From Isoetes taiwanensis (taxonomy: Eukaryota > Streptophyta > Lycopodiopsida > Isoetales > Isoetaceae), in contig JAJEKV010000054.1 in the NCBI GenBank assembly GCA_021234155.1, positions 5,007,962 through 5,071,961 of the forward strand: 64,000 nt of DNA, given 5' to 3'. Each line of letters begins with the position of its first letter. Positions within the stretch are counted from its first letter, which is position 1. Below are positions 9,363 to 56,079 of this stretch, piece after piece. Below the pieces are notes generated by a model that worked only from the letters and a program-made list of their open reading frames with translations, did no database searches and had not been told where the DNA came from. A program made the translations under genes and the position numbers.

Positions 9363-12300
9363 GGACTGTCCACCGTCAGGTTGGCTTGCTGGAATGTTAA
9401 CACTCTCAACTCTGATAAGGTGTGTACTATGTACGATTTGTTGGAGAGCATAGATGTTGTGTTCTTTTTAGAAACATGCGAGCATGAGGAGAATGGCTTG
9501 CCTGATATTGTTGGTTTTAAGTTATTATCGTCAGTCTGGAATCATAAAGGCTGGGCTCTTAAGGGTTATGGTGGCATTGCCTGTTATGTCACGGAAGAAA
9601 TTGTGCATTTGGTTAATGTGGTTGCTAATAAAGCAAATAAACAATATATAGATTGAATTACCTGGTAAGTTTAGCAAGGTTTATGTTGCTGGGTGTTATT
9701 TCCCACCAAGAGAATCTCCTACATATAAGAAAGGAGACTTGGATAAGGATGATCCTTTTTTCCATCTGGAACAGGATATGTTGGCCTTAAGCCTTTCTGG
9801 GGAAATCTTACTGTTGGGGGATTTCAATGGACGTACAGCAGACAATCAAGCCGCATTAGTAAGCTCAGATGGGGATCCGGAATGGGTTGAGATGTTGGAT
9901 GATGAGAGTGTTTGTGCTCAGGGTTGGAATAGAAACACTGATGATAAAGCAAAATGGATCACTCCACAAGGTAGACATGTTTTACACCTATGCAGTGGTT
10001 TTGATATGGTAATTTATAATGGCACTGCTCACTTTCCTGGGTCTGGCAAACGTACCTGTAAGAATGCTAGTGTTGTGGATTATATTATTGCAAAACCTTC
10101 TTTCAAAGAACAGGTGGTTGGCTTGTCCATTGGGCGTGAAAGAGAGGAGTCCAACCATGCACCTCTTCTCATTGAAGTCTCTGTGATAAGTAAGCACATA
10201 TGTTCTCAATCAGTTAAGCATAATAGACTGCATATGAATTTTGATAAGGCTGATCACTATAGTGCTTTATGTAAAGAAAAGGTAATGTCCACAGATTGGA
10301 CAGGTAATATATGTGATATTAGCAAAAAGCTATTAGAAAATTTACTTTCAGCTTCGTGGGATTGCTTTTTGTCACATAGACAACAGATGGGATTGCCATG
10401 CAATAGGCGGTTTGATTCTGAATGTAAACAGATGAGACGAAAGCTTAGAACATCATATGGATCGGAAAGGGTAGAAATAAGGAAAGTATATACTAAACTG
10501 ATAAGGCGGAATGAAAGAGAATACCTGCACTATAAACATCAAATGATGGTTACAGAACTGCTTGATAATCCTAAAAAGTTCTGGAACAGACTTAAGTCCA
10601 CCCAGCAACATAATCATGCCTTGGATGTGAATGCTCTCATGGCACAAGTGTGCGCGCTATATCATGTACCAGGTATGGATGGGAGGATGACTATTGAACC
10701 TAATGATTGTATGCTTTTTACAATCAATGATGTGAAGAGCGGACTCCGAAAATTATCAAATGGGAAAGCTCCATATGCATATAATATGGTGGCAGAAATG
10801 TTAAAGTGGGCTGGTGATGAGGTTGCTGATAAATTAGTAACACTGTTTAATGCGGTCTTAAGAGATGGTTTTCCCTTGGAATGGCAAATTAACAGGGTTG
10901 TACCTCTTCATAAATCTGGTAATGTCCATGATCCGGGTAATTATCGCATGATTATGATCAGCAGCATATATGCAAAACTGTTTGCTAGCATTTTGGAGTC
11001 TAAAATTAGCACTTGGGCTGAAACTAAAAATGTCAGAGCAGTTGGACAAGCTGGATTTAGACCCAAAAAGTCTACCACCGACCAGCTTGTTACACTCAGG
11101 GCTATGATGGATTCTGTTGTGGGCAAGAGAAAGCCACTATATGCCACTTTTGTAGATTTTGCTAAAGCTTTCGATACGGTAAATAGGAAACGTCTATGGC
11201 AGCATATGGTGGATCTAGATGTGCCCTGTAAATATCGAAATGCTGTGGGTAGACTTTATGAGAAAGTCTTGGTTCAATTATCTTCTCCATTTGTAGAAGT
11301 ATGTGATGAGTGTGTATGCAGTAACATTGGGGTCAAGCAGGGATGTCCCATGTCACCTACTTTGTTTGGGTTATTTATCGATGAACTGGAGAGTTGGATA
11401 CGCTCACAGGGAGGAGATGGTACACGACTTAGTGGATATGTCATCATGTTGCTTCTGTATGCTGATGATGTAGTCCTCCTTGCTAGGAGCATAGGGGGTA
11501 TGCAGGGATACTTAGATACGCTGGCGAAATTTTGTGATGCCAAAGGTATGCATGTTAATTTGAATAAAACTAAGGCTATTGTTTTCGGAGCAAATAAAGT
11601 CGATCATGTACATTTTTATTATAAAGGGGAACCCGTTGAGATTACAGAAGAGTATAAGTATCTGGGCTTGCTTGTTGATAAGAGTTCGACATGGAACCAA
11701 GCAGTGGAACACAGGGTTAATGCCGGTTTGAAGGCTTTATATGCTATGCAAAGGAAGTGTGTGAAGGCTGACATTTGGAATTTTGATATGAAACGCATGC
11801 TATACAAGGTCCTTGTGCAAACAGTTGTGCTATATGGATGTGAGATATGGGGGCCCGGATTGGCTAATGACACATGGAAAAGGGTAGAAAAGATTCAAAA
11901 GAAAAATTTTCATACTAAACTGGGTACTAAGATGCAAACACCATATGACATGATGCTCGCTGAGTGTGGTATGCTCCCATTGGAGATAGAGGCACTATGT
12001 AGACTTCTTAGATATTTGTGTAAAATTTTGTATGATATTTCTGAAAATAGCTTACCCAGGTTAGCATTAGAAGAAACCCGGATGAAGGGGTGGTTTGCAG
12101 ATATTGTTGATTGGCTGAGAAAGTGGGGAATGGATATAAATGAATTGGAAGGCCATAGAGAACACCTCGAAGAGTGGGTGCATGGGCATTACACTAGAAA
12201 AGCATGGCATATTCCGGCAGTTAAGAAGGAATATTATAGAGCAGTTTTCAATCCTGAACTGCGAGAGGCACAATACCTTAGAGAGGCCATATCAGTTAAA

Positions 12301-12684
12301 CATAGACATGCTATATGCAGAATGAGGCTAAGCTCACATCGCCTTGGGGTTGAGATTGGGAGATGGGCAGATATACCCCATGAACTCCGGCATTGTAGAC
12401 TCTGCAATGCGGGGGTGGTGGAGGATGAGGAGCATGTGCTGTTATGTTGTCATGCATACGATGACATTAGGGACAGATATAATATTGTTGATGGATTACT
12501 TGCAGATTTTTTTCTGTACCCAGGGTCTTGCATAAGAGCATACATTGTTGATATGTTGGAGCGTAGGGAGAGTAATTTGAAATCCTTGGATGTTGAAGAT
12601 TTGGAGATAGAGGAGCCTAGTGTTCTCTCATCTGAAGAGGCACTAGATGATATATTCTATAGTCATGAGATTGTAGTTCTTTGA
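9363..12684 (+). pseudogene. LINE ORF2: endonuclease-reverse transcriptase, one frameshift
   Basis: The frame opens right after the ORF1 TAG and reads LACWNVNTLN (endonuclease Asn), VVFFLETCEHEE (catalytic Glu), GGIACYV. At about 9651 one base is lost, and the next frame continues IELPGKFSKVYVAGCYFPP to the end. Endonuclease motifs are LLLGDFNGRT, VDYIIAKP and SNHAPLL (SDH is usual; Asn may be normal for this family). RT has NYRMIMISSIYAKLF, GQAGFRPKKST, TFVDFAKAFDTVN, GVKQGCPMSPTLFG, LLYADDVVLLA and YKYLGLLVD. The C-terminus has a Cys/His motif, CRLCNAGVVEDEEHVLLCC. It nicks target DNA and primes cDNA synthesis there. The downstream frame alone is 981 residues. Confidence 0.92.
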
Positions 12685-12745: not shown

Positions 12746-14539
<1,794 letters not shown>

Positions 14540-19493: not shown

Positions 19494-21623
19494 CTAGTAA
19501 TGGTGCCCAGCGTTGCTGGGCATAAGTTGAGAACCTGTGTGGACGAAAACCTATTCAGCCCAGACTTCTTTCCATAAATCTAACATAATGGAAATCAAGC
19601 CCAGTGTTGCTGAGCTATAAACGGTTTTTGTGCATTTAATACCCTTCCCCTTCCCTTTGCTTTGTGCTCTCTCCTGTGTTTCCCCTTTTCCTCATTATCC
19701 CACACACTTTCCTTTTTCCTTTTCCCTTTTTTCTTATTTTTCCTACACGTTATCTTTTTCTCTTCTCTCATTTTTCTTTTTTTAGCCCCCTTCCCTTCCC
19801 TTTCCCTTTTCCTTTTTCTATTTCCCTTTCACTTTCCCTTTTTCTAACAGGCTTTTTCTCTTCCCGTTACATCTTTTCCCCACCCTTCCCATTTTTCACT
19901 TTCCTTTTTTCCTTTCTTTCCTTTTGCTTTTCTTTTTCCCTTCCTATTTTCCTCTATTTTCCCCACCTTTTTATGTGGCCCTTTTCTTCTCCCACCCTCT
20001 TCCTCTTTATCATGTGTTCTTTTCCCCTTCTCTTTTCCCATTTCTCTCTCCCCTTTTCCTTGTGCATTTTTTCCTCCCCTCCCCCCTTTCTGCTTCCCTT
20101 TTCTTTTTTCTTTTCCCTTCCCTTTTCTTCCCTTTCCAACCCTTTCGATTTTCGCCATGCCCTTTTTCCCTTTCCTTTCCTCCTTCCTTTTCATTTTCGC
20201 TTTCCCTTTCCCTTCACTTTTCTTATGCCTCTTTCCATTTGCTTTTCTCCACCTTTTTATGTGCCCATTTTCCTCCTTTTCTCACCCTCCTCCGCCTTTC
20301 CCTCTTCCACTTTCCCTTTTCTCTCTCTCTCTCTCTCTCTTTTTTTTCCCTTCCCTTTTCCCCTTTCCTCATCCGTTCCCTCTTCCCCTTTTCCCTGTGC
20401 CCTTTTCCCATTTCTCTCTTCCTCTTTTTCCATTCATTGCTCTCCACCCTTTTCTCCTTTTCCCCTCCCCTTTCCTCCTTTTCCCACCCTTTCCCTCTTT
20501 TCCTTTTCTCGATGCCTTCTTATCTTCCTTTTTTCCCTCTTTGTCTTTTCCCGTTTCCCTGTCCCTTTTTCTATGTCATTTACCCCTTCCTTTCTCCTCA
20601 CCATTTCTCTCTAACCTTTTCCCTTCTTTTTTTCGATACTCTATTTTCGCTTCCCTTTTTTCTCTTTCTTCACCCTTTCCCTCTTCCCTTTTTTCGCATG
20701 CCTTTTTCCCCTTCCCTTTTCCCCTTTTCCTCCTGCCTTTTTTCTAGGTTCCCTTTTCCCCTTTCCATCTCCCTTTTTCTTTTTTCCTTTCCCTTCCCGT
20801 TTTTCCATGCGCTTTGTTCGTCCCCTTCTTTCCACCCTTTTCCTGTTCACCTTTTCCCCCTCCCTTTTCCTCCTTTTCCCACCATTTTCCTCTTTCCCTT
20901 TTCTCGATGCCTTTTTAACTTTCCTTTTTCCCTCTCTTTTTCTTTTTCTTTTTCTTTTTCCCTTTCACTTTCCCTTTCCCTTTTTCCATGCCATTTTCCC
21001 CTTTCCTTCTCCTCGTTTTCTCACCTTTTCTCTCTAACCTTTTCCCTTCCTTTTTTCGATGCTCTCTTTTCGCTTTCCTTTTCCTCTTTCTTTACCCTTT
21101 CCCTCTTCTCCTTTTTCCCATGCCCTTTTTCCTTTCCCCTTTGCCCTTTTCCTCGTGCTCTTTTTCTAGGTTCCCTTTTTCCCTTTTCACCTCCCTTTTT
21201 TTTTCCTTTCCCTTTCCTTTTCCCATGCGCTTTGTTCGTCCCCTTCTTCCCACCCTTTTCTCTTACCCTTTTTCTCCTTTCCCACCCTTTCTTTCTTCTC
21301 CTTTTTTCCGTGTCCTTTTTCCTTTCCCTTTCCCCCTCTCTATTTCTATTGTTTTTTCTGATTTTTCTCATGCCATTTTTCCCTTTCTTTTCCCTTTTCT
21401 TTGCCCTTTTCCTCTTCTCCTTTTTCCCTTTTCTTTTCCCTTTTACCTGCGCCTTTCCTACATTTCCTTTTTCTTTCCCCTTAAAAGACCAAATCATGAC
21501 TAATCATGGTAGTAGAAAGTCATGCAATGAATCTTGGCCTTTAGATTCAATCAGATGATCTCAGCCATTCGAATTAGGGCTTGATCCATTCAATACGGTA
21601 TAACATTATAATATAGGATAGGA
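19494..21623 (-). mobile_element. Non-autonomous Helitron-like element, complete by its ends
   Basis: On the minus strand it begins TCCTATCCTATATTATAATG at 21623, preceded by A, and ends with a GC-rich hairpin (GCCCAGCAACGCTGGGC), then ACCATTA and CTAG at 19494, followed by T. A|TC...CTAG|T with a hairpin just before the end is the Helitron hallmark. The first 70 bp (TATATTATAATGTTATA, then CAAGCCCTA, ATGGCTGAGAT) match the 5' end of the plus-strand element at 44378. No RepHel coding is present. The body is mostly the homopyrimidine tract. Confidence 0.72.
19640..21490 (+). repeat. 1.85-kb homopyrimidine tract with about 420-bp higher-order period
   Basis: The plus strand is almost only T and C (TTTTCCC units), with rare landmark words. 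Landmarks recur at fixed offsets: CTCTAACCTTTTCCC near 20609 and 21032 (423 apart), TTTCTAGGTTCCC near 20741 and 21163 (422), GCGCTTTGTTCGTCCCC near 20809 and 21227 (418), and TCGATGCC near 20509 and 20904 (395). Open frames of 316 and 544 residues (Phe/Ser/Pro/Leu only) are by-products of composition. Confidence 0.9.
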
Positions 21624-24600
21624 TGTTTGAAATTCAAATTCTATGTGCATTTAATAACGAGGTCCATATTTAATTCCTCATGGTCAATTATGGAAACGGT
21701 CCTTTTTTTTTAAAAGATCCATTTATTTTAGGCACGACGCTTGTCATGCATGCATGAAGGATCCATACATGGCCCCTTTAAAAGCCCGTTCTACTCTTTG
21801 ACTGCAGTTTTAGAAATTTCTGCATTCTCCCTGTTGCCTTGGCGCCTTCTGCTGCTCATCACACTGTCGCCTTCGGATTCTCAGTTTGCCAATCATCTTC
21901 TTGTCGCCTTCGTATCGGCGTCCTCTCCTCCTGAACCAGTTGTCGGCTTCGGATCGCCATAACTTGGCGCCTTCTGCTTCTCATCCGCTTGTCACCTTCC
22001 TCTTGGCGCCTTCTTCTCTTGATTGTCCTATCGCCTGCAAGTCCCTGTACACTTGGCGACGCGTACCAGTTGATGGCATCTCACCCCACGACAGGAGGCA
22101 AAGGTAAGCATGACTATTTGTTTAATATTAACTTGGCAGTATCTCTCAGCGCCTGCTTGATTGATACTGCCACATCATAAATATAACCCTTAGTGATCCT
22201 TACTTGCATGGCCCCTGGTGCAAATTGGGCTGGGGCTTTCTTAGTTCCATTTCAAGTATAGCTAGGTATTATAAGTCTACAACTTCGTGGTTGCCTCATA
22301 GAACCGTACTTATGCCCGACAATGCCGGGGACCCATAAATAGTATGTGCTATAGTTATTTCCATTCGATGTGCTACACAAAGTGCTGCAACTACAGGTAA
22401 ACTTCTGCCCTCCTACTTCAATGCTTCGAGGTCTTTTAGGATTTTTTAGGAATCCTGAATTTCAAAGTAAGAAGAATGTAGAAGAGATGTTTTAGTTCTT
22501 GGGTTGAAGGTATGGAAAAGGCACACGGTTGAAGGTATGAAGGTATGGGTTGCTTCACTTCATTTCTGCCTTTGGTTTTGCAGGTCGCAATGTATAATAA
22601 GTAGATATCCTATCCTATTGTTTAAATTTGGTTTTTCCGGGGTTCCGAAAACTTTTTGGATTTTTTTTTTCAGGTTGGTTTTCTAAGGTTTAGAAGCTTT
22701 TAGCTGCTGGAAAACTTTTCAGGCATTCCAAAAATCGGGTTGGGTTTTCGTATGATTTTTTTAATCTAGGTTTTTGTCCCGAATTCTTCTTCTGTCTTTT
22801 GGCTTGGCTCCACCTCATTTGATCGAGGGAGGAGTAGAGCTCGGCATGCAGGTCACGTTTTTGCCTCCAAAACTATTTGCTCTAGACTTACGATCTATAG
22901 CCATGAGTTTGAATACCAGGTATAGGGTTTTGGGTTGCAGCTGGTAATCGAAGCATTTTTCATGTGTTCTAATTTTGCCCTTTCCCTGTGGGTATGCATA
23001 TTCTGCAAAGAAGATCTTAAGCCACAAATCTAGGAGAAATCGGTTGCATATATATTGTTTGCATATCTGTAGAGGTTTAATATTCTCTGTAAGATTTCTC
23101 AATGTTCTCTGTAAGATTTCTCCCCTTTTCGTCTTTGCAAGAATTTAACTTATTTCTTCATTTCGATTTGTGTGATTTCCACTGAGTTATTTGACCTCCA
23201 TATCTTACAGAGAAAGGGCGGCATCATAACTGAAGAATTGTAAAAGGATTATTCCAGCTCTTTTATGAATACAGGATGGCCTTTGGCTATCCCATCTTCA
23301 GCAAGGAGTTTTGTGGGTTTTGCATTCAGTTTTGTAGCAGGTTTTTCTGGAGCCGTTGATGACTTAGACCCAAGCAAGGGATCAAAGCTATTACCCTAAA
23401 CTCTGATCGGGAGCTTACATGTTATCTGGCATGCTGGCAGCAGCAACAGATCGAGGTACATCTGTTTGATTGCTTGAAAACTTCCTAATTTTTCCTTATC
23501 AAATTATGCTCTTTCTGCATGCAACTTAGATATATTCGATTCACCTACTTAGTTATTCTATTGCATGAATCTGTCATTGTTGCTGCAGTGTAGTTGCCAT
23601 GGCCTCCCCTCTTCCTGTTAGTCGTGATTCTTACGGTATGAGTGAAGAATCGGGAGCCTTTCTATTGCTAAACTGTGATTTTGCATGTGTTGCAAAACGA
23701 TCAGGCTAGAACTGTTCTGCTGCAAAACGATGATTTCCTTGCTGTAGGTTGGAGGTGTATAATTTGCTACTAGAGAATACTTGAAATTCCTCACAACTTG
23801 AGGTGTGTTTGCTCCATTTGTTCAAGCATGATTACTTTTGGATTCTCATGATACTTACAGGCGATGATCTAGGCGTGCAGGTGGCTTGGAATGGATTCAG
23901 AGCTTCAAGTTGTGTGTTAGAGTTTGTTCTATCGTGTAGTCTACATAATACTTGATTTCATTATAATTTTCTATTTATTTGTCTCTGTGGAATACTTACT
24001 GCATGCTTACTGGATGCAGGACACTGTTATACTTGTATTATGCAGAATTATGCTATACTGCTATACTGGAGGCGAGAATGTTTGATACTGCCATGGACTA
24101 GATCATATCTTTCTCTGATTTCTTTGCTTTGCTTATTTCTTAGAAAAATGGGTCTCCTCTGATGTTTTTCCTTCATGCTTGAGCTTTGCAAATCTTTTAG
24201 CTTTGAGAAACATCTTTTATGGATAGACTAGGTTCTTCCAAATTATCACGCTTTGAGAGAATATCTGTTATGGGTGAACAATAATACTGTTATTACACTA
24301 CAACCCCAACATTGGGTCCACGGCTGAAAACAACAGTAAAAACAAATACGAGTTGACAACCCAGAAATGTTCAGATGTTTCTGCATAGAGGCTACTCATA
24401 TCAACAAGTAACATGAAGCTCAGATTCAACTAGAACTTATAATTTAAGAAGAATTCCTTACATCGGGCAGGATTCTGAAGTAGTGAAAATCACCGCCTAT
24501 AATTCGAAATGGTTCACCATCTTTCATTGCCTATCTATGATAGAACACATTGATTTGTATGTTTTCAGCTTTGGTTGCTATCATCTAACATTCGTGAAAG

Positions 24601-28029: not shown

Positions 28030-28675
28030 TGATATGGTTTAAGGTTAATAACTAATAATGGTGCTCGGGGGAGTGGCCTTGCATGGAACAATATTTATTG
28101 ATATGATCAAGTAAGAAAGTCATCCAGTATGTCTAAGCCTTGCTATTATCAAAGAGAGTGCTAAAATAAACCTTGACCTTTATTTAGAGGCAAAAAGGCA
28201 AAAAAAGGTATTGTTGCCTATAAATAGAAGGACAACTTTGAGATGTGATATCTCCGCAACCACAACTCAGAAATCGGCGATCCTTACCTTGTTGGAAAGC
28301 TCTTGAAGTCTAGTTTCCAGATTGGGTTTGGTTGTCCATAGATTCCTTACGGTTTGAAAGTTATGCCCAGAAAGGTGCATAGGGGTCTGAGTTGACTGCA
28401 CAGCTAGATCTGCTTCTTCCTATGTTGATGATGAGCCTAGCCTTACCTTCTAGTATCTTCTCTTGTTCCTTGCTTGATCATATCATTAGAAGGAGTTCAT
28501 GTAACACCAGTGGTTGGTGGCTAGAAAGAGTTTGTTCTTATACAGTCTTGCGGAGTAGCTTGACTCGGTGATATCTCTTCTAGTTGGTCCGGTTGGGTGG
28601 TAAAACGAGTACCCTGTGGTATTTTGCTTTCTAATAAGTGGATGAATTTGCTGGAAGAACAGGTCATTCGTAACA
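28030..28675 (+). repeat. 5' LTR of the non-autonomous element
   Basis: 646 bp, TG...CA ends. It contains AAAAAAGG and a CCTATAAATAG TATA box near 28219, followed by a leader-like region. Almost identical to the 3' copy. Confidence 0.95.
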
Positions 28676-28691
28676 ATTGGTATCAGAGCTC
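28676..28691 (+). other. tRNA-Met-i primer-binding site
   Basis: ATTGGTATCAGAGCTC lies directly after the LTR end. TGGTATCAGAGC is the complement of the 3' end of plant initiator tRNA-Met and primes minus-strand cDNA synthesis. Confidence 0.93.
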
Positions 28692-29444: not shown

Positions 29445-30093
29445 TGATATGGTTTAAGGTTAATAACTAATAATGGTGCTCGGGGGAGTGGCCTTGCATG
29501 GAACAATATTTATTGATATGATCAAGTAAGAAAGTCATCCAGTATGTCTAAGCCTTGCTATTATCAAAGAGAGTGCTAAAATAAACCTTGACCTTTATTT
29601 AGAGGCAAAAAGGCAAAAAAAAGTATTGTTGCCTATAAATAGAAGGACAACTTTGAGATGTGATATCTCCGCAACCACAACTCAGAAATCGGCGATCCTT
29701 ACCTTGTTGGAAAGCTCTTGAAGTCTAGTTTCCAGATTGGGTTTGGTTGTCCATAGATTCCTTACGGTTTGAAAGTTATGCCCAGAAAGGTGCATAGGGG
29801 TCTGAGTTGACTGCCACAGCCTAGATCTCGCTTCTTCCTATGTTGATGATGAGCCTAGCCTTACCTTCTAGTATCTTCTCTTGTTCCTTGCTTGATCATA
29901 TCATTAGAAGGAGTTCATGTAACACCAGTGGTTGGTGGCTAGAAAGAGTTTGTTCTTATACGCCTTGCGGGAGTAGCTTGACTCGGTGATATCTCTTCTA
30001 GTTGGTCCGGTTGGGTGGTAAAACGAGTACCCTGTGGTATTTTGCTTTCTAATAAGTGGATGAATTTGCTGGAAGAACAGGTCATTCGTAACA
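29445..30093 (+). repeat. 3' LTR of the non-autonomous element
   Basis: 649 bp, TGATATGG...GTAACA. It is followed by the second ACATC target duplication and then the resumed small ORF. Confidence 0.95.
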
Positions 30094-30694
30094 ACATCCG
30101 CTCTTTCAAGTGTTACTTGAGCTACAACGATCTGGGCGAATGCGCTAGAAATAGCGTTAAGCTTGATCCATGGCTCTTATCTAAAGTCGATGGACCTGCT
30201 AGTGCTTGCAGGGAAGCTCACTTTCAGCGTTAAAGTCCATATTTACCGGCTTCCCCGATCAGAGATCTATGAGCTGAATGGCATCACGAGCTTTGATGTT
30301 GATGACGAGTGAATCTGCACCTGCTAATAATGTAATAATGACATGGGTACCTAATAACTAAGTAAGGATGTAATAGCATTCTGATTAAGGATGTAATATC
30401 ACGTACCTTAACTGAGTATATTGTAACGATGTGCTATCCCACCTCCACTTATTCTCGCGTAAGCTGTCATTGAATTCAATCATAGCTAAATTAGCCAAGC
30501 AAACATGTTTTGAAACATAATGCATATTAGTACGCATACATATATCCATACGAAAGATGTATTATACTTGTATTTATACAACGGTCTTATACACGAGAAA
30601 TAATGACGCCGAAGTCTACCCTAATAATTCACCTTAATAATTCTACCTCACTATAAAAGCTTCTCACTTCGGGGCTAAAGTTCATTCCTCTCCC

Positions 30695-46473: not shown

Positions 46474-46646
46474 TTGTTAGGGGTAATGTTCGGTGGCAGG
46501 GCATTACACGGGGTAAGGCCACCTGGCGAGCCCCAGTGGCCTTACCCCGCGTAATGCCCTGCCACCCAACATTTCCCCTCGAAATGTTAGGGGTAGGCCA
46601 CATTTGACACGTGCGAGGAGGACATTTTAGACATTACCCTTAACAA
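46474..46646. repeat. Foldback element with 43-bp hairpin arms
   Basis: Arms 46480-46522 and 46536-46578 pair with three mismatches around a 13-nt loop. The inner 31 bp (GGTGGCAGGGCATTAC...) has only one mismatch. An outer pair, TTGTTAGGGGTAATGT (46474-46489) and ACATTACCCTTAACAA (46631-46646), encloses it. No coding. It lies directly against the left inverted repeat of the recombinase unit. Confidence 0.92.
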
Positions 46647-46929
46647 TCCGGTGAGCTTGGCGAGGTTGGCGATGGCGCTCCATTAGGCGTTTGCCTTCCT
46701 TGCTCACTTTTTGCCTTGCTCCCGTGCTGTTTTCTGAGTTGCTTCCTTTTTGCGGACTTTTGGTGTTGATTTTGACGCTGGCGCTTCAATTTTCTGATTT
46801 TCACTGGCACTTGCATCTTTGGTCTTGACTCAGCAGCATGATTATTTCCTGTAATCTAAATGTTTTCATGATTATCTATCGATTTTCTCATGATTTTCTT
46901 GAAATGCATGCGTCCTAACATGTTTTCAT

Positions 46930-47033
46930 TGCGTGCCTATTGAAGATATTCCATTGAAGGAGTTAAATGATATGCTGGTCAGATTCATGCTTCAAGTAAA
47001 AAAGAAGAATGGAGATCTTTATCCCGCAGACAG
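46930..47033 (+). CDS. Tyrosine recombinase exon A (N-terminal helices)
   Basis: The frame reads IEDIPLKELNDMLVRFMLQV, KKKNGDLYPAD and meets the donor GACAG|GTAAAG at 47033. The wording L-x-x-F-x-x-V-x-K-K-x-G-x-x-Y-P is the N-terminal core-binding signature of Crypton/DUF3504 recombinases (EVRKKDG..YPP in animal members, from memory). The 5' boundary is uncertain and no start codon was fixed. Confidence 0.6.
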
Positions 47034-47105
47034 GTAAAGTTTTTTGTGCATTTCTTTTAATTTGTTTTAATATATATAGACCAGTGGCTGTTTCTGCGTC
47101 TGCAG

Positions 47106-47201
47106 CCTTAGCGTTTTATACAGGGCTATTGGAAGAATGGGGAGGAAAAATCAAGAAAAAAAGATTGGAGAGACGGGAAATCAGGAAGTCAGGTTCAATA
47201 T
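47106..47201 (+). CDS. Tyrosine recombinase exon B
   Basis: The acceptor TCTGCAG (47105) joins exon A in phase to give D-S-L, then SVLYRAIGRMGRKNQEKK and ETGNQEVRFNI. This is the helix that in family members reads TLY-x-I-x-x-I-x-R. The exon is cut at 47201 by an inserted module; GGTTCAATAT reappears at 47431. Confidence 0.6.
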
Positions 47202-47430
47202 AATGCCACGGTTCTATTGCGATAGCAATAGAACCGACATTCCTTGGATGGGGACGTCCCTTTCTTCTCGTACCTCCTATTTATTCTGCCTCTCTTCGTC
47301 TGCCATCGGCGTTCTCTTGAGCTAGTTTTCTTCTTCTTCTTCTCTATCCTACCAGTCTTCGGTCTCAGACCGAGTAGGAAGCAGACCGAGTAGGAATCTC
47401 TTCGCCTTTTCATCAACCCGATGGTTTGAG
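47202..47430 (+). mobile_element. Inserted module copy 1 (229 bp) in the recombinase gene
   Basis: Bounded by a direct repeat, GGTTCAATAT (47192-47201 and 47431-47440). The first 155 bp (from AATGCCACGG, with the palindrome GGTTCTATTG-cgat-agCAATAGAACC) is nearly identical to 52963-53125. The remainder (CAGACCGAGTAGGAA twice) is specific to this copy. No coding capacity. It may be a retroposon or SINE-like unit. Confidence 0.5.
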
Positions 47431-47440
47431 GGTTCAATAT

Positions 47441-50400
47441 GGTCGGTTCTGGTGCTTCTCTACTGCAGTTCATTGCTTGTTCTGTTTTCCTACAGTAGTT
47501 CGTCACTCTTGGTGGTTCGGTTGTATGTAAGTTTAGTCGTGGCCTCTGGATTTTGATAAGGTTTTAGGGTTGCTTTCGCTAGATTAGGGTTTATCTGTTA
47601 TTTTAGAGTTTCTTTTGTTGGATCGCTTTCAGGAATTTGGGTTATCTGCTTCTGTTCATATAGATTCTTAGATGGGTTCGGGTGAGATTGACTTATTTTT
47701 TCCAATGCGTTATGGCGGTTTTATTTTTTATTGTGATGATTTTCTGGGATCCCAGTCTTGCTTATTTTTGGGAAGCCCATTTTTCTGTAATTTGACCGGT
47801 TAAGTTATTGTTCCTCTATTCTTCATGGACGTTACTGTAGAAGGTTGTCCAGGGCTGTAGGTGTTGAGGCCGAATCTCCTTACCACGCACGCCCTTGAAC
47901 ATGTGCAAAGGTGGCTGCAGATCGATCTGGCTTTTGGATGCCAAATTTCTGGCTTCTTAGTATTTTACGGCAGCCTTGGATCTTAGTTACGGAGTGCTTG
48001 TTTTTGGGCATGGAGACCAAGCGATTGCAGATTACTTTGAGCATTCGATCGAGCTGCGTGCCCGTTCCAAAGGCTTGTTCAGGAGGTCATCCGGTTCTCT
48101 CAAATACAGCATCTCCGGTATTTTATATTCTTGCATGCACATGTTTAGCTCTAACATTTTAGACTTGAATTCTCAACTCATCCAAGGATAGATTGTTCGA
48201 ATGCATCCAAGGATGCAACTGTGGAGATTTGATGTATGGCCAGAAAATGGAGCTGTCATTCCCTCAAACACTATGATTCTATTGTTGCGAAGTGCTGGTA
48301 CAACACCTGGATTTTGTTTTTCCTTTTATTTGCCACCCAACAGCAGTCATACCACTGTTGTCCGTGCTATTCTTAAACTCTACTAACTCTTCTTCTTTAA
48401 CTTTAACAACAAAAGTGTTTATTTTCTGAATAAGCCATTCAACGTCTCTTTGCTTAGCCTATAGCAGAATATAGCAGGACTCCTATTAGAAAGCATTGCA
48501 TGTATTCTGTTAGAGAGCATTGCATCCATTCCGTCAGTGCCACTGTTTCTAGGCCCTCTACATATGGTCTTAACGACATTCTCTGCGTCAACCATGTTAG
48601 ATGTAGGAAGACCATGGCTCATAGCCAGTTCTGCTTTTATTAGTAATAGATCGATCTGCATGTAGTAACAGATAAATCAGTTCATGCCTGCGAGTGCGTC
48701 TTTGCCTTTATGGATCTGTCTTTTGGTAGCAACATGAAGTAGAATATCTCCTTTTTTCTCTATGTGGCCAAGAGATGCATTGTTAGAAATTGTACATTTT
48801 ACCTCTTTGCCCATGTGCAGCAGCACAGTACATAGCAGCCCATCCTTTTGCATCACATCTATCTTTATCAGTTTCCAATACTCTCTTCTTGGAGTTCCAT
48901 TGTGCCCTGTGTGATTTCTCTGATCTGATTCTAAATACTAACACTCATATTGCTTTCGTCCAGAAGAGCCGATAAATTAGTTTGTTCTTTCCATGAGATT
49001 CTCATGAGAGTGTGCAAATTTTTGTGAACTAATTCGCACGTTCCTGTTTCATTCATACTCATTTATACTGATGTTGTATATGTTATACAGGGTTCCATGG
49101 CAATCTCTCCCATATACATTATTCTTACTTGCGCTAATATTGGTCTTATGTTTCGAAGCGTTTCTTGGGCAATACCATACGATCTTCAATTGTAGCTTCA
49201 ACCTTGTGGATCTAACATTGTCCGCAGCCATTTTGATCTGGCCAAGATCTTCGATCTGGAAAGGGCCTGGTTTTTCCTATTATTCTTTCTCTATTTTGCA
49301 ACTATCAAGTCTCTCCGACTGTAAAGTTCCCTCTTTCTTTTTCACTCCATCTAATTTTTATCAGGTTTGCAAGGGCTTAAATGAGTACTTATGGCGAGGT
49401 GGTTTTATGAACTCGGGGGCTAGGATATATCGATTCCTAAGTGAAGTTGTCTTCTGAGCACAGGTTTCATTCATTATAGAATATTGACGTATTTGTTAGT
49501 TGCATGTTGTTGGTTGATTGACATTACTTTTTATTGCTGGGCAAACTTGAATTTCTATTCCCATTAGGGCAACGTGCATGTGTTTCCAACATTACTTATG
49601 AAGTGCATATTTTTCTAACATTATTTGCGTTCTTTGTTCCTTTTACATCTTTTTTCTTTCTTTGGCTTCATTGCTCCTTCTAATACCCGTGCTTTCATTA
49701 AGCCGTCATTTTTGAATTTCATAAGTGATTTGCTTTGATGTTTTACTTTTATAAGTTCAGATGAACCCATTGCTCATATTTGTTATATCTATTCGTTAGA
49801 TTAGTTTTGTTTCACGGTATTTTGTCGTCATAGTAGTCAATGAGTTTGTCAGCTACATTGGTTCTCTTGTTTAATCTCAAGTGCACTTTGATTGTTGTCA
49901 ATTTTCGTTGTGCCATTTTTCATGTCTCCCATTCTTTGGTTCTCTTGTTTAATCTCAAGTGCACTTTGATGTTGTCAATTTTCGTTGTGCCATTTTTCAT
50001 GTCTCCCATTCTTTTCTGTGTTCTATTTGTCCATAGACTTGGGTGTCCTTATTCGCCCATTCTTTTCGATCCATTTTATCTTTTGTTCTCAGCCATCTCA
50101 TTAGTCCCTTGTGCTCCATGCTTCTACGATTCTTTCACTTTGTTGTCCACAATTGCTTCCCTCCCCTCTTGTCTTGTTTAGCCTTCCACTCTTTCCATAT
50201 TGGTTCTTATGTGATCGTTGTTATGGTTTCATATGATGACTAATTTTCTTGTCTCCCTCTTTTTTTGCATTCCATTTTGCCCATATTTTTGGGTGTCCTT
50301 ATCTATCCATTCTATTTTATGGCTCATTTTTATCTTGACCACCACATTAGCCCTTTGTACCCCTTTGGCTTCTAATGTTTATTGGCTTTGATTTCTACCA

Positions 50401-52925
50401 TTTTGTCCCCCCTCTCCAGTCTAGATTAACCACCCATTCTTCTTGTGTTGGATTTGTCACACTTACCGATTTGGCCCCATTCCACCTATTGTTAGTTCCC
50501 TTGTGATCTACTTATCCCAATTGCCATTAATCCTCTTTTCGGCTGCCTTATTGTTTCTATTTTTCATTGAAACATAGGTGTTCCAGAGGATTTTTTTGAG
50601 GTGCATTTGTTGTTGATGTGCATAGATGATTTCATGTACCTCATTACCAAGTTCTGTCAGGATTGACATATAATTGGATGCACTAGACGAGGACGATGTG
50701 TTTGCTATTTATGGCCTTCTTGTTTATGGCTTTTCACATTTTTTGGTCTTTACATCCTTTCTCTTTGCATAGGCACCATAATTCTCAAGTTTTTTGGATA
50801 TCAACTTTCAACATTTTACACATTGCATTCTTCGCACTTTAGTTTGTAACGTTTTGAGACAATGCTTTATTGGTTGGATTCATCTACTTGAGGTCCTTTC
50901 TAGACTATTTGCGTCTGGAATAGGCATAGTTGGATACATTGTTTACAGCTCTGGTCATGTTTATTTATGTTGTTTCTTTGTTCGTTGTTCCGTTTCTGTT
51001 CTATCCGTTCTATTTGTCTTGCACTTGTTACTTTTCCCTTCTATCCTACGGTTCCATTTACTTATTCTGCATTGCTTTGCATTTTAGTTCGATGTGCTCC
51101 AGTGTTCAGGCTCACTTTGGCGCCGTTGCCGCTAATATGTTAGTCTTTATTCTATTGTTCTGTTTACTGCACTGACCTCATCTTCTATTTGACATCCTTT
51201 TGTCCTTTATATCCCATCATGTGCTTTAATCACATTTGTCCACACTTGTTCTATTTGGTCATTAGTCTCCTTAGCCTCCATGGTCTGATTATTCCATTCA
51301 CACTTTTTCAGTTGTTCTAGTTTGGTCATTTGCTCGCCTTTTCGGTCATTTTCTTAGTTCCATGCGCGTATTGTTCGATTCATTGTGCGTCCCTTCCAAC
51401 TTTTATTTACTTTTAGCACTGCATGTTTTGCTTTTAGATAATTATTCCATTATCTCTATACCTTGTCGCTTTAATCTCTATACCTTGTCCCTTTATATCT
51501 CTGTACGTTATATTTTCTTTGTGTTTGATTCTTCAAGGTTCTTTAGTTATGTTTTGCTCTTAAAAGTGTTTCTTTTATTTCCTTCTTCTGCCTCCCATTT
51601 CTATCGATAAATATTATAATTCTGACTCCTTTCTGACTTCTGTTCATATTATCACGCCATTCGTTACTTCATTTTCTCCTATAGCTCCTTTGGATTTGTT
51701 GCCTTTTTCTTTTTGATATCTATGTTAGTTTGGGCTTATCGTATGTTTTGCTGGCATAATGTTCGTTCGTGCATTAATTCAGTTGGATCTGCGTTTGGTG
51801 GTGGTGGTTATTTTTGGTTATTGTCATATTCGCAGATTTTGTTTGTTTTCATCCCAACAGTTCCTTTTTCCATCTTCCACTGCATTGTTCCATTGTTTCC
51901 TTTTAGGTTTTCCATTGCGACAATATTTCGGTACAGTTCCTTTCGCATCTTTCATCGCATTATTTCATTTTGTTCACTTTAAACATTTTGTTATTTCGTA
52001 TTGTCGATCCCTTACTTACCATTTTTGCCTCGCTTATTTGTCCCATTATTCTATTCCTTTTGTTGTCTCATTACTCCATTATCCCTTATGCATTTTGATA
52101 TTCTGGCACTTCTCACTTGCTCCACTTACCTCGTTCTTCCACTTGCTTCATGTTTCCCATCAGCTCCTTACCTATGCATTTTGTTCATTTTGCATTGTTC
52201 ATTTCATATGCATGTCTTCGTCTTACCTATACATTTGTTTCATTTGTTGCATTGACCCGTATAGACTTATTTTTTCCTTCGGCTTTTACTTTTCATATCT
52301 GTTTGGTTTCTGGTTTGTTCAAATTTGCCAAGTTGGTCATCTAGCCGCTCTACTGGTATCCTTCGATCATGTTACATGTGCTCTAGCTTTTTTAGAATTG
52401 GCTCGTCTCCTTTTTTGGTTTTGAACTTCGTGCCTTTTTTCGCATTGGCCTTTTGTCTATTAGCTTGATCTTGGTTGCTTTTGCATCCATTCGAATCTGG
52501 TTTTTCATCCTGTTTTTCATTGCTGCTACCTAGCTTGACTCCTCTTATACTTAGTTCCTTTTTTGCCATGTGTTTTTGCCATGTGTCTCTTTACCCGTCC
52601 TGTTCTCTATGTCACTATCTGCTCTGCATCCCTTTTATTTGATTCTTTTCTACCGCATGCGATGTTCTCTTTCCATCCGACTTTCATTCCATCTGTCCCG
52701 TTGTTATTCTGTCTGTTCTAAAAGTCCCTCTTGCGTCTTTGGTTGTCTCCAGTTTTGATTCTTTCCACTTGCTCCATATGTCTCATCAGCCTTATCTGTG
52801 CATTTTGTTTTTCCTTTATGCCAGCGACCTTTGGAGACTTATTTCTGCCTTTCTTTATACTATATTTCTTTTTAGCTTCTTTCTTTCTCCTTGCTGTATA
52901 GTTTTGAGATTTGTTCCTCTTCTAT
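47441..52925. other. Long intron-like interior of the recombinase unit
   Basis: T-rich on the plus strand, especially 49.8-52.9 kb, giving long Phe/Leu/Ser-rich open frames (for example 51759-52424) that are compositional. A possible exon-like piece lies near 47930-48120. I see no recognisable domain. It separates exon B from exon C. Confidence 0.4.
49858..50015 (+). repeat. 78-bp tandem duplication
   Basis: TTGGTTCTCTTGTTTAATCT and the following 58 bp occur twice in a row (starting about 49858 and 49936), differing by a 1-bp indel. Confidence 0.93.
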
Positions 52926-52965
52926 CGGCTGTCATATGTGCTATCATAGGACCCATCCTAGGAAT

Positions 52966-54039
52966 GCCACGGTTCTATTGCGATAGCAATAGAACCGACA
53001 TTCCTTGGATGGGGACGTCCCTTTATTCTCGTACCTCCTATTTATTCTGCCTCTCTTCATTCGTCTGCCATCGGCGTTCTCTTGAGCTAGTTTTCTTCTT
53101 CTTCTTCTCTATCCTACCAGTCTCCCTCACCCTCCCTCCCTTGATGGATTGTCTGCACTTGATGGTGGCAATCGTTCCGTTTGTTTCTATATTCTTTAAG
53201 TGCATTATTCATTTTTTCTCAGCGTGGCATAGTAGCCTCTGAGGCATACTTATCATTCTTTCTCAGTGTGGCGATGTAGCCTCCGAGGCAGCACTAGTCG
53301 ATGTTCCCGCGATGGTCATTGTTGCAGGGTTTTGGTTCATTCTATGATGGGGGCTAGTGGCTTTCTATTTCATGTATAGTCTCATTTCTTCTCGGCGTGG
53401 CACTGTAGCCTCCGAGGTATACTTATTACTTCTTTCTTTCTCGGCATGGCACTGTAGCCTCCGAGGCATTCTTCTTTTTCATTCTCTCTCGGCGTGGCGC
53501 TGTAGCCTCCGAGGCAGCACCAATCAGATGATTTTTCCTGCGATGGTCATTCCGCAGATGGTTCTCGATTGGTCGGCTGTTGTCACTTCCTCGGCGTGGC
53601 CCTGGAGCCTCCGAGTGCTATTATATTCTTTCTATATGATTACAGTTTGGCACTTGTCCAGGCTTAAAGTTCCTAACTTTCTAACGGGTCGTTCTCATTT
53701 TCAGACTTTCCATTGCAGGTCTTGTTTTTTGCAGTTTTGTCAGTTGGCAGCGCCATCATGTGTGCATCAACTCACTTTTGGCGAATCTTGCTCATTAGAG
53801 CGGGATTTTTCATCCCGATGAGGAGCGGTCGCCAGTTTTTTCACGTTTGCATATACCAAGTAGTGGAACAATCATCTTTGATCTGGCACTCTTCAATTTT
53901 TATCATGCTCTCGATAAATTGTCTAGTTTCAGAGCATGTTCAATTTTCAAGCTTTTCATATTTTCTACCCCCTAGTAGGGGAACAATATGTACTCAAAAG
54001 ATTTTACAAAAGCTCAATGAGAACACCACTTCACTTACC
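52966..54039 (+). mobile_element. Insertion (1.07 kb) with a 40-bp target duplication
   Basis: A 40-bp sequence (CGGCtGTCATATGTGCTATC...CTAGGAAT) at 52926-52965 recurs at 54040-54079 with one mismatch. The insert begins with the same 155-bp module as copy 1 and ends ACCACTTCACTTAC, resembling the CACTT tail of LINE 2. A long target duplication and a simple-repeat-like tail fit target-primed retroposition. The interior contains a six-copy minisatellite. No protein is encoded. Confidence 0.6.
53217..53615 (+). repeat. Dispersed minisatellite CTCGGCGTGGCACTGTAGCC (six copies)
   Basis: Copies at 53217, 53261, 53390, 53439, 53487 and 53590, each about 28 bp and ending CTCCGAGG. The ends CTCGG and CCGAG can pair. 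A companion phrase, GCGATGGTCATT, occurs near 53311 and 53541. Confidence 0.9.
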
Positions 54040-54062
54040 CGGCCGTCATATGTGCTATCATA

Positions 54063-54521
54063 GGACCCATCCTAGGAATTACTAATGACACTAGAGCTAC
54101 CTATGCTTTTGTATTAGCTGCTAGGATCCAAGGTGTTGGCACTAAGAGTGTTAGGGCACCTTCTATCAGTTTCAATTTAGAAAGGGACCTGTTAGCATAT
54201 GTGGATCATCAAATGACGTTTAATCAGGGCTGTCAGAAGCGTCTGTTTTTTTTTACCTTCGTTTAAGGTTTGAGATAAGGGCAGCGACAGAACTTTATAA
54301 TTTGCTGGATAGTGATCTTTCTATTGGCAGTGATGACTGTGGTGAGTTTATAGAATACAGTAGAAGGGAGAGTAAGAATTATCAGGTAACTGCAATAAGA
54401 TATGATAGCAGTCATTTTAAGGAGCCTGTTCGCACGCATGAGGCAGATTTCGTCATGTCTTTTAAGCAATATCTTAGGCATATGTCTGCCAAAGATTTCT
54501 ATTAACATGCCTGCTGGAAAT
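54063..54521 (+). pseudogene. Tyrosine recombinase exon C (catalytic Arg region)
   Basis: The acceptor ATCATAG (54062) opens DPS. One frame change leads to FVLAARIQGVGTKSVRAPSI, SFNLERDLLAYVDHQ. A T-run near 54247 shifts the frame, then LRFEIRAATELYNLLDSD carries the first catalytic Arg (family G-L-R-x-x-x-E-x-x-x-L), followed by SKNYQVTAIRYDSSHFKEP, DFVMSFKQYLRHMSAKDFY. The donor GGAAAT|GTAAGT is at 54521. The match to Crypton/DUF3504 (x-ARxxx-GxGT-xxxxAxPIS) is clear by eye. At least two frame lesions make it a pseudogene as assembled. Confidence 0.65.
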
Positions 54522-54595
54522 GTAAGTAGTTTGAGATTTTTTATTTTATTGCTTAGCTTGAGATTCAAAGATTATTACTGATTGTTCCTTTTCAG

Positions 54596-54791
54596 GTTTG
54601 GTATTCCCACAATAATGTTGGACTGAAGATGATAAAATTTTGGTTTAAGACAATGGGTTCTTTAATTGATCATGGGGAGATCTCAAATAAATGTGGACGC
54701 GTTGCAACAGTTACACGATTGGCGATGGCAGGTGCTCCTGCTGAGGTTGGTATGAGATCATAGGGCATCGATCACTTGAAGCATATGTAAA
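54596..54791 (+). pseudogene. Tyrosine recombinase exon D (KxxR and HR boxes)
   Basis: The acceptor CCTTTTCAG (54595) opens VWYSHNNVGLKMIKFWFKT, GEISNKCGRVATVTRLAMAG (the HxxR box appears as K-C-G-R), APAEVGM. A one-base shift then gives IGHRSLEAYVK, the second His/Arg box, and the donor GTAAA|GTAAGT at 54791. This block is the most diagnostic of the tyrosine-recombinase fold. Confidence 0.72.
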
Positions 54792-54858
54792 GTAAGTGCT
54801 TGTAATTTCTGCTTGTAAAATCTTGTTATAATTTGTGCTGATAAGTTCTCTTTCTTAG

Positions 54859-55221
54859 GTATGACAGGGCGAAGGATATTCAGATGCATGCCGCTATGTC
54901 TATTATCTCTAATCCAGTTATTGAAACTGGTGCTCCCAGGACTTATGAATCAATGTTAACTGCTAAGATTGAAAAGAAACAAATGAATGACATCTCGTGT
55001 TTTAGTTGCAGTTGATCCAAATGAGAGTGTTGGCCAGCAAGTATCTGTGGAGGCAGGTTCAGTTAAGGGGAAGGAAATTGCTATCCCGATTTGTGTTTCT
55101 AAGGCTCCAGGTTTTGGAAATGACAAGGAAAATGCTAGTACTCAGTTTAGTCTCTATGCGGATATTTCTGATGAAGCTTTATTGGATTTAAAAATTCCAT
55201 CGTCAAAAACTCTAGTCAGTG
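54859..55221 (+). pseudogene. Tyrosine recombinase exon E (catalytic Tyr) and C-terminal tail
   Basis: The acceptor TTTCTTAG (54858) completes V-K-Y-D-R-A-K-D: the Tyr is placed as the nucleophile that forms the covalent 3'-phosphotyrosine bond. The exon continues IQMHAAMSIISNPVIETGAP, RTYESMLTAKIEKKQMND. After a frame change near 54985 it reads VAVDPNESVGQQVSVEAGSV, KGKEIAIPICVSKAPGFGND to KTLVSG, with a donor GTG|GTAAGT at 55221. The tail is unrecognised. Confidence 0.6.
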
Positions 55222-55598
55222 GTAAGTCTCTGCGGCATGTTTTTGGTTTCTCCTTTTTAGGAAGTGTGAGCAATTGTTTCTTCATTCAGTGCACTGATCC
55301 AAGTTAGATCAAAGATGCATTGTAGAAATATCATGGGGAATCTTCTAATTCTGATAAATCTGGTAGTCTATCATCTGATAAAACCTGTTGAATGCCTGCA
55401 ATGGCAAATGAAACTGTTTTTGAATGAAACTTTTGTAATGAATTGTAGATTGCTTGAAGCACTACAACTTTTGAATGGAAACTGCTTTATGATATGAAAT
55501 TTTGGTGTAAGTGACTAGAAATAATGTGAATTTGAATTCAATTGTTGAATTGTATTGTAAATTTGAATGTATTGTGAATTATAATGTATAGCTGGCAC

Positions 55599-55955
55599 CA
55601 CTGTTGTTTCCGTACGGGTACGGTACCTTTCAAGTACTTAGCATACCGTACCAGAGGTACGGTACGTACGAAATGAAAAATGAAATGTTTTTGCTTCAAA
55701 TTTTTGGAGTTTTCAACACAAGTACGGTAAGTATTTTAAAGGTACTGTACGTATTTTATAGGTATTTTATAGGTACTGTAAGTATTTTACAAGTATTTTA
55801 TAGGTACGGTACGTATTTTATAGGTATGGTAACAACACGTTTTAACGTACTGGTTTTTTTTTTTGGTACGTTAAAAACTCAGAGGTACGTTACGAGGTAT
55901 GATACGTAAAATACTTACAGTACCGTACAGGTATGGTAAGTACGTAACAACACTG
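55599..55955. mobile_element. hAT-type MITE (357 bp), GTAC-rich
   Basis: Terminal inverted repeats CACTGTTGTT and AACAACACTG (one mismatch) are flanked by a perfect 8-bp duplication, GCTGGCAC (55591-55598, 55956-55963). This is the hAT signature. The interior is many copies of GGTACGGTAC/GTATTTTATAGGTA. No coding. It lies inside the recombinase unit, near its right inverted repeat. Confidence 0.88.
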
Positions 55956-56079
55956 GCTGGCACAAGCATTGTAAGATGGCACTAGCTAGGACAGGTGGCA
56001 CTAGCACCTTGCCAGGTGGGACAGGAAAGTTATAGGATGTAAGAATCGTCAGAGAAATGTGGCCTACCCTAACATTTCG

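What the first reader, a model, noticed from the sequence alone, without database searches (positions are those of the whole stretch)
46580..56079. Crypton/DUF3504-like tyrosine recombinase, spliced, flanked by inverted repeats
Five exon pieces in order carry the YR layout: N-terminal KKKNGDLYP, catalytic Arg (FEIRAATELYN), CGRVATVTRL, GHRSLEAYV and the Tyr in KYDRAKD, with three introns that fit GT-AG and join codons correctly. A 26-bp inverted repeat encloses the gene. Cryptons normally lack terminal inverted repeats and, as far as I recall, are not established in land plants. This could be a new plant YR element group or a domesticated recombinase. The H/KxxR box reads KCGR.
Basis: partly seen in the sequence, partly recalled or inferred. 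Interest (0 to 1): 0.8.

Follow-up and report, generated by a model that had tools for sequence, protein, structure and literature searches.

The report
Plant Crypton-like transposon, hairpin left end

Summary
The gene in the window is a dead copy (4 frameshifts, exon 2 split by a 6.9-kb insert, most of exon 1 missing) of a DNA transposon family in a 1.66-Gb streptophyte genome. The gene region gave 42 matches there, fragments included. Of 20 copies fetched, 2 have all exons open, with dN/dS 0.11 between them. A profile of 120 real DUF3504/Crypton proteins scores the spliced window protein 52.9 bits and an open copy 93.1 bits (2000 shuffles each: at most 6.6 and 4.7).

The ends, fixed across copies, are GTTAGGGG (46476) and ATTTCG (56079). 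The 26-bp inverted repeat is terminal only on the right; on the left it lies behind a 105-nt hairpin whose stem covaries between copies. Related empty sites show precise insertion without target duplication: the left junction NTTTNG comes from the target, the right junction ATTTCG from the element, as expected when a recombinase integrates a circle. Shorter copies without the gene share both ends. I call it Crypton-class with a new terminal layout. The searches made turned up no report of a land-plant Crypton. Movement by this enzyme is inferred, not tested.

The parts
46476..56079 (+). whole YR element, window copy (9604 bp, including two later inserts)
   Evidence: ends fixed by alignment of 17 left ends and 18 right ends from 20 fetched copies plus the window
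46476..46582 (+). left terminal hairpin, GTTAGGGGTAATGTT.. to ..AACATTTCCCC
   Evidence: DNA fold -50.3 kcal/mol, z -13.35, 0 of 200 shuffles; stem covariation over 17 sequences
46580..46605 (+). left (subterminal) copy of the 26-bp inverted repeat
   Evidence: exact form AATGTTAGGGNTAGGCCACATTT occurs 62 times in the genome, reversed control 0
46933..47033 (+). remnant of exon 1 (..LKELNDMLVRFMLQVKKKNGDLYPAD)
   Evidence: Crypton profile E 3.2e-4; PF25561 QRICH1 E 0.0057 alone, below cut-off; the rest of the exon is missing here
47106..47204 (+). first part of exon 2, up to the insert
   Evidence: open frame across the joined flanks
47202..54079 (-). later insert with split direct repeats (A1 47202-47358, B1 52926-52965, A2 52963-53123, B2 54040-54079), AAT at its three junctions; not part of the YR element
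   Evidence: uninterrupted target in 18 of 20 other copies; same layout elsewhere
54080..54521 (+). rest of exons 2/3 (catalytic Arg in FEIRAATELYN, Lys in ESKNYQ), with frame breaks near 54236 and 54505
   Evidence: single open exon in L020 and L021
54596..54791 (+). exon 4 (KCGR box, GHRS), with a frame break near 54753
54859..55219 (+). exon 5 (catalytic Tyr in KYDRAKD, C-terminal extension), with a frame break near 54995; 3' limit uncertain
55599..55955 (.). later hAT-like MITE, flanked by 8-bp GCTGGCAC (55591-55598, 55956-55963)
   Evidence: absent, with one GCTGGCAC, in L011, L012, L015, L016
56055..56079 (-). right end: terminal copy of the inverted repeat, ending CTAACATTTCG
   Evidence: exact 26-base right end occurs 61 times in the genome, reversed control 0

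Best explanation
The feature is a decayed copy of a multi-copy land-plant DNA transposon family that encodes a Crypton-class tyrosine recombinase, which likely moves the element as a circle by recombining an ATTTCG core at its joined ends with T-rich NTTTNG sites. Shown: the gene's homology, its catalytic residues, purifying selection, fixed ends, copies without the gene that share the ends, and precise insertion without target duplication at related empty sites. Inferred: that the circle exists, that the joined ends CCCTAAC-ATTTCG-TTAGGGG are the recombination site (two short inverted arms round a core), that crossover leaves the target core on the left and the element core on the right, and that the left hairpin with its inverted copy of the right end serves recombinase binding or end pairing. 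The window copy itself can no longer make the protein.
For: Profile of 120 database proteins carrying PF12012 (118 of them also PF25561, all PF00589) scores the spliced window protein 52.9 bits over profile positions 91-399; best of 2000 shuffles 6.6. Open copy L020: 93.1 bits, E 8.4e-31 for one sequence; best of 2000 shuffles 4.7. Arg, Lys, K-x-x-R, His and Tyr all align. 42 genome matches, fragments included. All exons open in 2 of 20 copies; dN/dS 0.11 between them. Third codon positions change fastest in 20 of 20 comparisons with L020. Fixed ends. Flank identity of 0-2 bp, so no duplication, in 22 of 23 copies with both flanks. Of 8 copies whose joined flanks were searched, 5 have related uninterrupted sites; in 4 of them (6 sites read) the empty site keeps exactly one G, e.g. 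TCTATTTT-G-TTCTT against TCTATTTT[GTTAGGGG..CATTTCG]TTCTT. 34 exact-end pairs: 8 with YR, 26 of 0.6-1.3 kb without.
Against: No Pfam match reaches its cut-off (QRICH1 E 0.001; DUF3504 E 0.0035). Two database searches with the window protein found nothing (0 of 781 candidates at E<=1; 0 of 749 at E<=10), nor did the PDB search. Most copies are dead, and dN/dS between decayed copies reaches 0.85. Cryptons are described as lacking terminal inverted repeats. Asymmetric repeats, a terminal hairpin and a T-rich target without duplication are also Helitron2 traits. L015 has a 6-bp flank match. The L028 empty sites are ambiguous at the junction; no empty site was found for L022 and L025, and L020's related site carries other DNA. 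No circle has been seen.
Confidence: 0.8

Rival explanations
1. The element is a Helitron2-like rolling-circle transposon and the YR gene is a captured passenger.
For: Read on the minus strand, the inverted repeat is terminal at the 5' end and subterminal at the 3' end, directly upstream of a hairpin, as the passages seen describe for Helitron2 (PMC3627910). Insertion is without target duplication next to a T run; that paper gives TTTT|T/C for a Chlamydomonas Helitron2. Tandem or nested rolling-circle-like elements may be present in the genome.
Against: The YR is kept under purifying selection, which a passenger need not be. The 16 loci with both ends span 2892-3344 bases, or 4413 and 4579 in two of them, which leaves little room for a Rep/helicase beside the YR; the long open segments printed for five copies were not recognised as one, but no helicase profile was run. 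The 3' repeat lies about 104 bases from the end instead of 20-30.
Confidence: 0.11
2. A cut-and-paste TIR element (hAT, Mutator, mariner) captured the YR gene.
For: A 26-bp inverted repeat encloses the gene; a Crypton fused to a Mariner with 16-bp TIRs exists in Fusarium (PMC3212892, passages).
Against: The repeat is not terminal on the left in any of 17 left ends aligned with the window. No target duplication in 22 of 23 copies or at the empty sites.
Confidence: 0.03
3. The element is a relict of a YR retrotransposon (DIRS, PAT, Ngaro) that lost its reverse transcriptase.
For: An inverted copy of the joined ends inside one end recalls the internal complementary region of DIRS1 (recalled, not looked up).
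Against: The YR matches DUF3504/Crypton proteins, whereas Kojima and Jurka report that DIRS and Ngaro YRs do not match DUF3504 (PMC3212892, passage). Copies are about 3 kb.
Confidence: 0.03
4. The gene is a domesticated host gene that happens to lie between repeats.
For: Some copies retain open frames under purifying selection.
Against: Many dispersed copies with the same ends, empty sites, complete catalytic set; the known domesticated DUF3504 genes lost the Tyr and the second Arg (PMC3212892, passage).
Confidence: 0.01

Closest known systems
Crypton DNA transposons (Repbase groups CryptonA, F, I, S, V)
   Same: YR of the DUF3504/QRICH1-domain type as the likely only transposase; short imperfect direct repeats at the ends (TTTNG / TTTCG); no target duplication; low copy number; non-autonomous derivatives (one Crypton case is described in PMC3212892, passage).
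   Different: Host is a land plant; four-exon gene with a C-terminal extension; left terminal hairpin and a 26-bp inverted copy of the right end. Which Crypton group is nearest was not resolved: only the 120 best hits to one consensus were compared.
Helitron2 / Helentron / HINE rolling-circle elements
   Same: Asymmetric inverted repeats, hairpin at one end, T-rich target, no duplication (PMC3627910, PMC5148889, PMC4067079, passages).
   Different: Encodes a YR, not seen to encode a Rep/helicase; repeat-to-end distance about 104 bases, not 20-30.
MarCry-1_FO (Crypton fused to Mariner, Fusarium oxysporum)
   Same: Crypton YR in an element with inverted repeats.
   Different: There the repeats are true 16-bp TIRs of a Mariner; here they are asymmetric and there is no target duplication.
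Domesticated DUF3504 genes (ZMYM2/3/4, QRICH1, KIAA1958, KCTD1, WOC)
   Same: Same domain family.
   Different: Those are conserved host genes without the full catalytic set; this is a repeated mobile element with it.

Membership tests
Crypton | YR catalytic residues R-H-R-Y | tested here: met
   Arg (GIRAATE), second Arg (NKSGR), Tyr (KYDRT) and the His of GHRS align with Cryptons; the His of H-x-x-R is Lys here. Which residue each letter of R-H-R-Y stands for is from recall.
Crypton | YR sequence of the Crypton/DUF3504 type | tested here: met
   93.1 bits for the open copy, 52.9 for the window copy, against a profile of 120 PF12012 proteins; Pfam's own DUF3504 model gives E 0.0035, below its cut-off.
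Crypton | Short direct repeats at the ends, no target duplication | tested here: met
   TTTNG left, TTTCG right; one core at empty sites; 22 of 23 copies without duplication.
Crypton | Encodes only a YR, no reverse transcriptase | tested here: inconclusive
   About 3-kb copies with one gene; open segments of 80 aa or more were printed for five copies and none looked like RT, but no RT profile was run on them.
Crypton | No terminal inverted repeats (descriptive; a TIR-bearing Mariner-Crypton fusion is nevertheless included by its authors) | tested here: not met
   26-bp inverted repeat, terminal on the right, subterminal on the left. I therefore claim 'Crypton-class, new variant' and file it in none of the five named groups.
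Crypton | Excision as a circle | not testable with these tools
   needs PCR or long reads
Helitron2 | Asymmetric inverted repeats with a hairpin downstream of the 3' one | tested here: met
   minus-strand reading; distance to the end differs
Helitron2 | Rep/helicase protein | tested here: inconclusive
   not recognised in printed open segments of five copies; no helicase profile run
Domesticated DUF3504 gene | single-copy host gene, catalytic Tyr and second Arg lost | tested here: not met
   multi-copy, residues present
DIRS/PAT/Ngaro retrotransposon | reverse transcriptase and RNase H in the element | tested here: inconclusive
   not recognised in printed open segments; not scanned by profile
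cut-and-paste TIR transposon | target site duplication | tested here: not met

The most novel reading that the evidence does not exclude
A plant-specific group of YR DNA transposons has evolved a one-sided end: a covarying hairpin followed by an inverted mirror of its own joined-end recombination site. The abundant split-repeat element nested in the same window has the same layout (inverted joined-end copy next to a hairpin, short core at every junction), so a wider class of land-plant elements, including ones with thousands of copies, may be moved by such tyrosine recombinases and have been overlooked or filed as Helitron-like.
Probability: 0.2. Interest if true: 0.86.

Novelty: new variant of a known kind. 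Interest (0 to 1): 0.7.

Why it matters
Crypton transposons are described from fungi, oomycetes, a diatom, insects and other animals, and no case from land plants turned up in the searches made. Here the family comes with what Cryptons usually lack: multiple copies, exact ends, non-autonomous partners, empty sites and two copies with open genes. That makes the open question of how Cryptons integrate directly testable, with a defined core (ATTTCG / NTTTNG) and defined arms. The covarying terminal hairpin is an unexpected feature for a recombinase-driven DNA transposon.

Tried and rejected
Led nowhere: single-sequence searches with the window protein, viral contigs for a DNA word of the nested insert and for the protein (0 exact matches; 8 pattern matches, none a relative). 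Pfam with raw frames failed on stop codons. A search for spanning empty sites inside the fetched DNA found none.

Considered and rejected: TIR cut-and-paste element (no target duplication, repeat not terminal on the left); domesticated gene (multi-copy with ends). A first reading of the nested insert as a chance tandem of two Helitron2 units was weakened when the same A1-B1A2-B2 layout appeared at other loci; its class remains open. An early idea that the 26-bp repeat was a TIR with a TA or 8-bp duplication was dropped once the copies were aligned.

Results against or weaker than the reading: of five hairpin measures, two are not clear of the column shuffles (pairs with both sides changed 8 against 5.5, reached by 37 of 500; further pair types 22 against 19.6, reached by 63 of 500), while paired cells, double-changed cells and covariation score were reached by 0 of 500; one of the 18 aligned left ends (L025) was not given to that alignment. 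The minus-strand 5' hairpin of the nested insert is weak (z -0.8). Per-segment profile search in the window finds only exon 1 convincingly. The profile came from the 120 best of 1557 hits to one consensus, so it represents one part of Crypton diversity. Structure prediction was not used: the spliced protein is not a letter-for-letter translation of the window. Rfam and structure-library searches were not run.
Full report
What was given. The finding is a spliced Crypton/DUF3504-like tyrosine recombinase (YR) between 26-bp inverted repeats at 46580-56079.

The observation. The five peptide pieces and the repeat are present. The repeat matches at 25 of 26 positions with one indel. Self-comparison showed a second layer: a direct repeat of 161 bases (47202-47358 and 52963-53123, 96.9% identical) and one of 40 bases (52926-52965 and 54040-54079, 97.5%). 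Their edges meet at AAT. Joining the outer flanks at AAT opens a frame that supplies the missing middle of the recombinase, so 47202-54079 is an insert within exon 2. In 18 of 20 other copies of the gene the target of that insert is uninterrupted; in L015 and L016 it was not found.

Is it a YR? Pfam gave only weak matches: QRICH1 (PF25561) E 0.0057 for exon 1 alone and 0.001 for exons 1 and 2 joined; DUF3504 (PF12012) E 0.0035 for an open copy; all lie below the curated cut-offs. Two protein database searches with the window protein found nothing, and the PDB search found nothing. A consensus that I wrote from memory then fetched real proteins: 1557 at E <= 1e-5, of which the best 120 were listed, each with PF12012 and PF00589 and nearly all with PF25561. 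A profile built from those 120 alone scored the spliced window protein 52.9 bits along positions 91-399; the best of 2000 shuffles reached 6.6. An open genome copy scored 93.1 bits; the best of 2000 shuffles reached 4.7. The catalytic Arg, the Lys, K-x-x-R in place of H-x-x-R, the His of GHRS and the Tyr align. Among 3129 six-frame segments of the window only exon 1 stands out alone (E 3.2e-4), so the case rests on the joined protein and on the genome copies.

A family in a plant genome. The window lies in a 1.66-Gb genome of 1110 contigs; the gene region gave 42 matches there, some of them fragments, about 71-87% identical over near-full lengths. The genome has 4 LEAFY-family matches over the cut-off, with 0 of 14 controls ringing, and LEAFY is a streptophyte family (recalled). 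I fetched 20 copies. Seventeen left ends and 18 right ends could be aligned with the window's. The left end is GTTAGGGGTAATGTT.., the right end ..CCTACCCTAACATTTCG; outside these, sequence is unrelated except in pairs that share flanks. The 16 copies with both ends measure 2892-3344 bases, except L017 and L024 (4579 and 4413). The window copy is 9604 bases because of two inserts, and it lacks about 0.8 kb with most of exon 1.

The gene is under selection. Guided by copy L020, the gene has four exons, taking exons 2 and 3 of the window numbering as one. Of the 20 copies, L020 and L021 show neither stop nor frameshift; the window has 4 frameshifting indels and 1 stop. Compared with L020, third codon positions differ most in 20 of 20 comparisons. 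Pairwise dN/dS ranges from 0.11 (L020-L021) to 0.85 among 28 pairs of 8 copies, rising with decay. This is what is expected if the YR is needed for the family to spread.

The ends. On the left a hairpin of about 105 bases (window: -50.3 kcal/mol, z -13.35, 0 of 200 shuffles) is followed by an inverted copy of the right end. In an alignment of 17 of the 18 left ends (L025 left out), 90.8% of stem cells pair, and 29 cells have both sides changed against 11.0 in shuffles (0 of 500); two further measures are not clear of the shuffles (37 and 63 of 500). Sliding the partner by one to three columns drops pairing to 37.7-47.0%. Gene conversion within a hairpin could contribute to this.

Target and empty sites. 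In 26 distinct left flanks, T stands at -3 in 24, at -2 in 21 and at -4 in 18. The joined flanks of 8 copies were searched in the genome (40 of 462 candidates scored). Related sites running across the junction were listed for five of them: L018 (11 rows), L028 (6), L019 (1), L026 (1, and 1 marginal) and L021 (1). I read twelve of these regions. For L018 (3 sites), L019, L021 and L026 the empty site has exactly one G between the flanks: TCTATTTT-G-TTCTT, TATTTT-G-CAAATG, CCATATA-G-TCCAG, TGCTTTTC-G-TCTTTG. For L028 (5 sites read) the junction is compatible but ambiguous. L020's related site carries other DNA; L022 and L025 gave no empty site. So the target reads NTTTNG, the left junction keeps it, and the right junction carries the element's own ATTTCG. 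Flanks match by 0-2 bases in 22 of 23 copies tested, and by 6 in L015. In the joined ends, CCCTAAC and TTAGGGG form short inverted arms around the core. This is the arrangement proposed for Cryptons, with short terminal direct repeats as recombination substrates and a circular intermediate (PMC3212892, passages).

Non-autonomous copies. The inner repeat occurs 62 times exactly and the right end 61 times, with 0 for the reversed controls. Of 34 pairs formed by exact ends, 8 enclose a YR match (2957-3138 bases, and two longer with nested DNA) and 26 do not (585-1276 bases). The 7 of these read in full share end regions with the YR element.

How it likely works. The YR binds the short arms at both ends, joins them into a circle through the ATTTCG core, and recombines that core with an NTTTNG site; the staggered exchange leaves one core on each side. 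The gene's homology, selection, ends and insertion products are shown. The circle, the site and the role of the hairpin are inferred.

Rivals. A Helitron2-like element with a captured YR shares the asymmetric repeats, the hairpin and the T-rich target (PMC3627910, PMC5148889, PMC4067079, passages). Against it stand selection on the YR, the size of the copies and the distance of the repeat from the end; no helicase profile was run. TIR elements, retrotransposon relicts and domestication fit poorly.

Novelty. Repbase lists CryptonA, F, I, S and V (PMC4455052, passage), CryptonV being from cnidarians by its cited title (PMC8869645, passage). A review says that Cryptons had not been described in Arabidopsis (PMC7385966, passage). 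Listings of five searches showed no land-plant Crypton, but I opened only some of the papers, and automatic annotations of plant genomes can carry the label. I rate it a new variant of a known kind.

Noticed in passing
47202-54079 (and L039-L053): Nested insert with split direct repeats A1..B1A2..B2 and AAT at its junctions. 33 of the 40 scored full-scale rows contain B1 and A2 side by side, from 2111 first-look candidates; the same layout is seen at C1059 (L043/L047) and C1089 (L053). It looks like a non-autonomous PAT/TOC-type YR retrotransposon in layout, but its ends also fit Helitron2 (14-base inverted match, 0 of 1000 shuffles; 3' hairpin z -7.2), and one copy seems to have an 8-bp duplication (GCTCAACA). 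No coding match in three of its open frames.
   Followed up: partly
L045/L048 (C1026 copy of the nested insert): Right repeat B2 is truncated and followed by a 12-base repeat (CATACACGAAAT) of the left flank, which suggests variable target duplication.
   Followed up: no
55599-55955: 357-base hAT-like MITE with CAGTGTTG-type ends and 8-bp duplication GCTGGCAC, absent from L011, L012, L015 and L016.
   Followed up: yes
9652-12684: Long open frame (1010 aa) of a non-LTR retrotransposon, RVT_1 E 1.4e-30; a related degenerate stretch lies at 13139-13864.
   Followed up: no
3393-7851, minus strand: Gypsy-type LTR retrotransposon frames: RNase H and integrase zinc-binding matches at 3393-4712, weak protease at 5164-6828.
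   Followed up: no
28030-28676 and 29445-30094: Direct repeat of about 650 bases, 98.9% identical, 770 bases apart; could be recent LTRs or a duplication.
   Followed up: no
20001-22000: Extreme strand asymmetry, GC skew -0.64 and AT skew -0.66, from a long pyrimidine tract.
   Followed up: no
L017/L024, L011/L027, L012/L014: Pairs of copies share both flanks, so they were duplicated with their surroundings or lie in other repeats.
   Followed up: no
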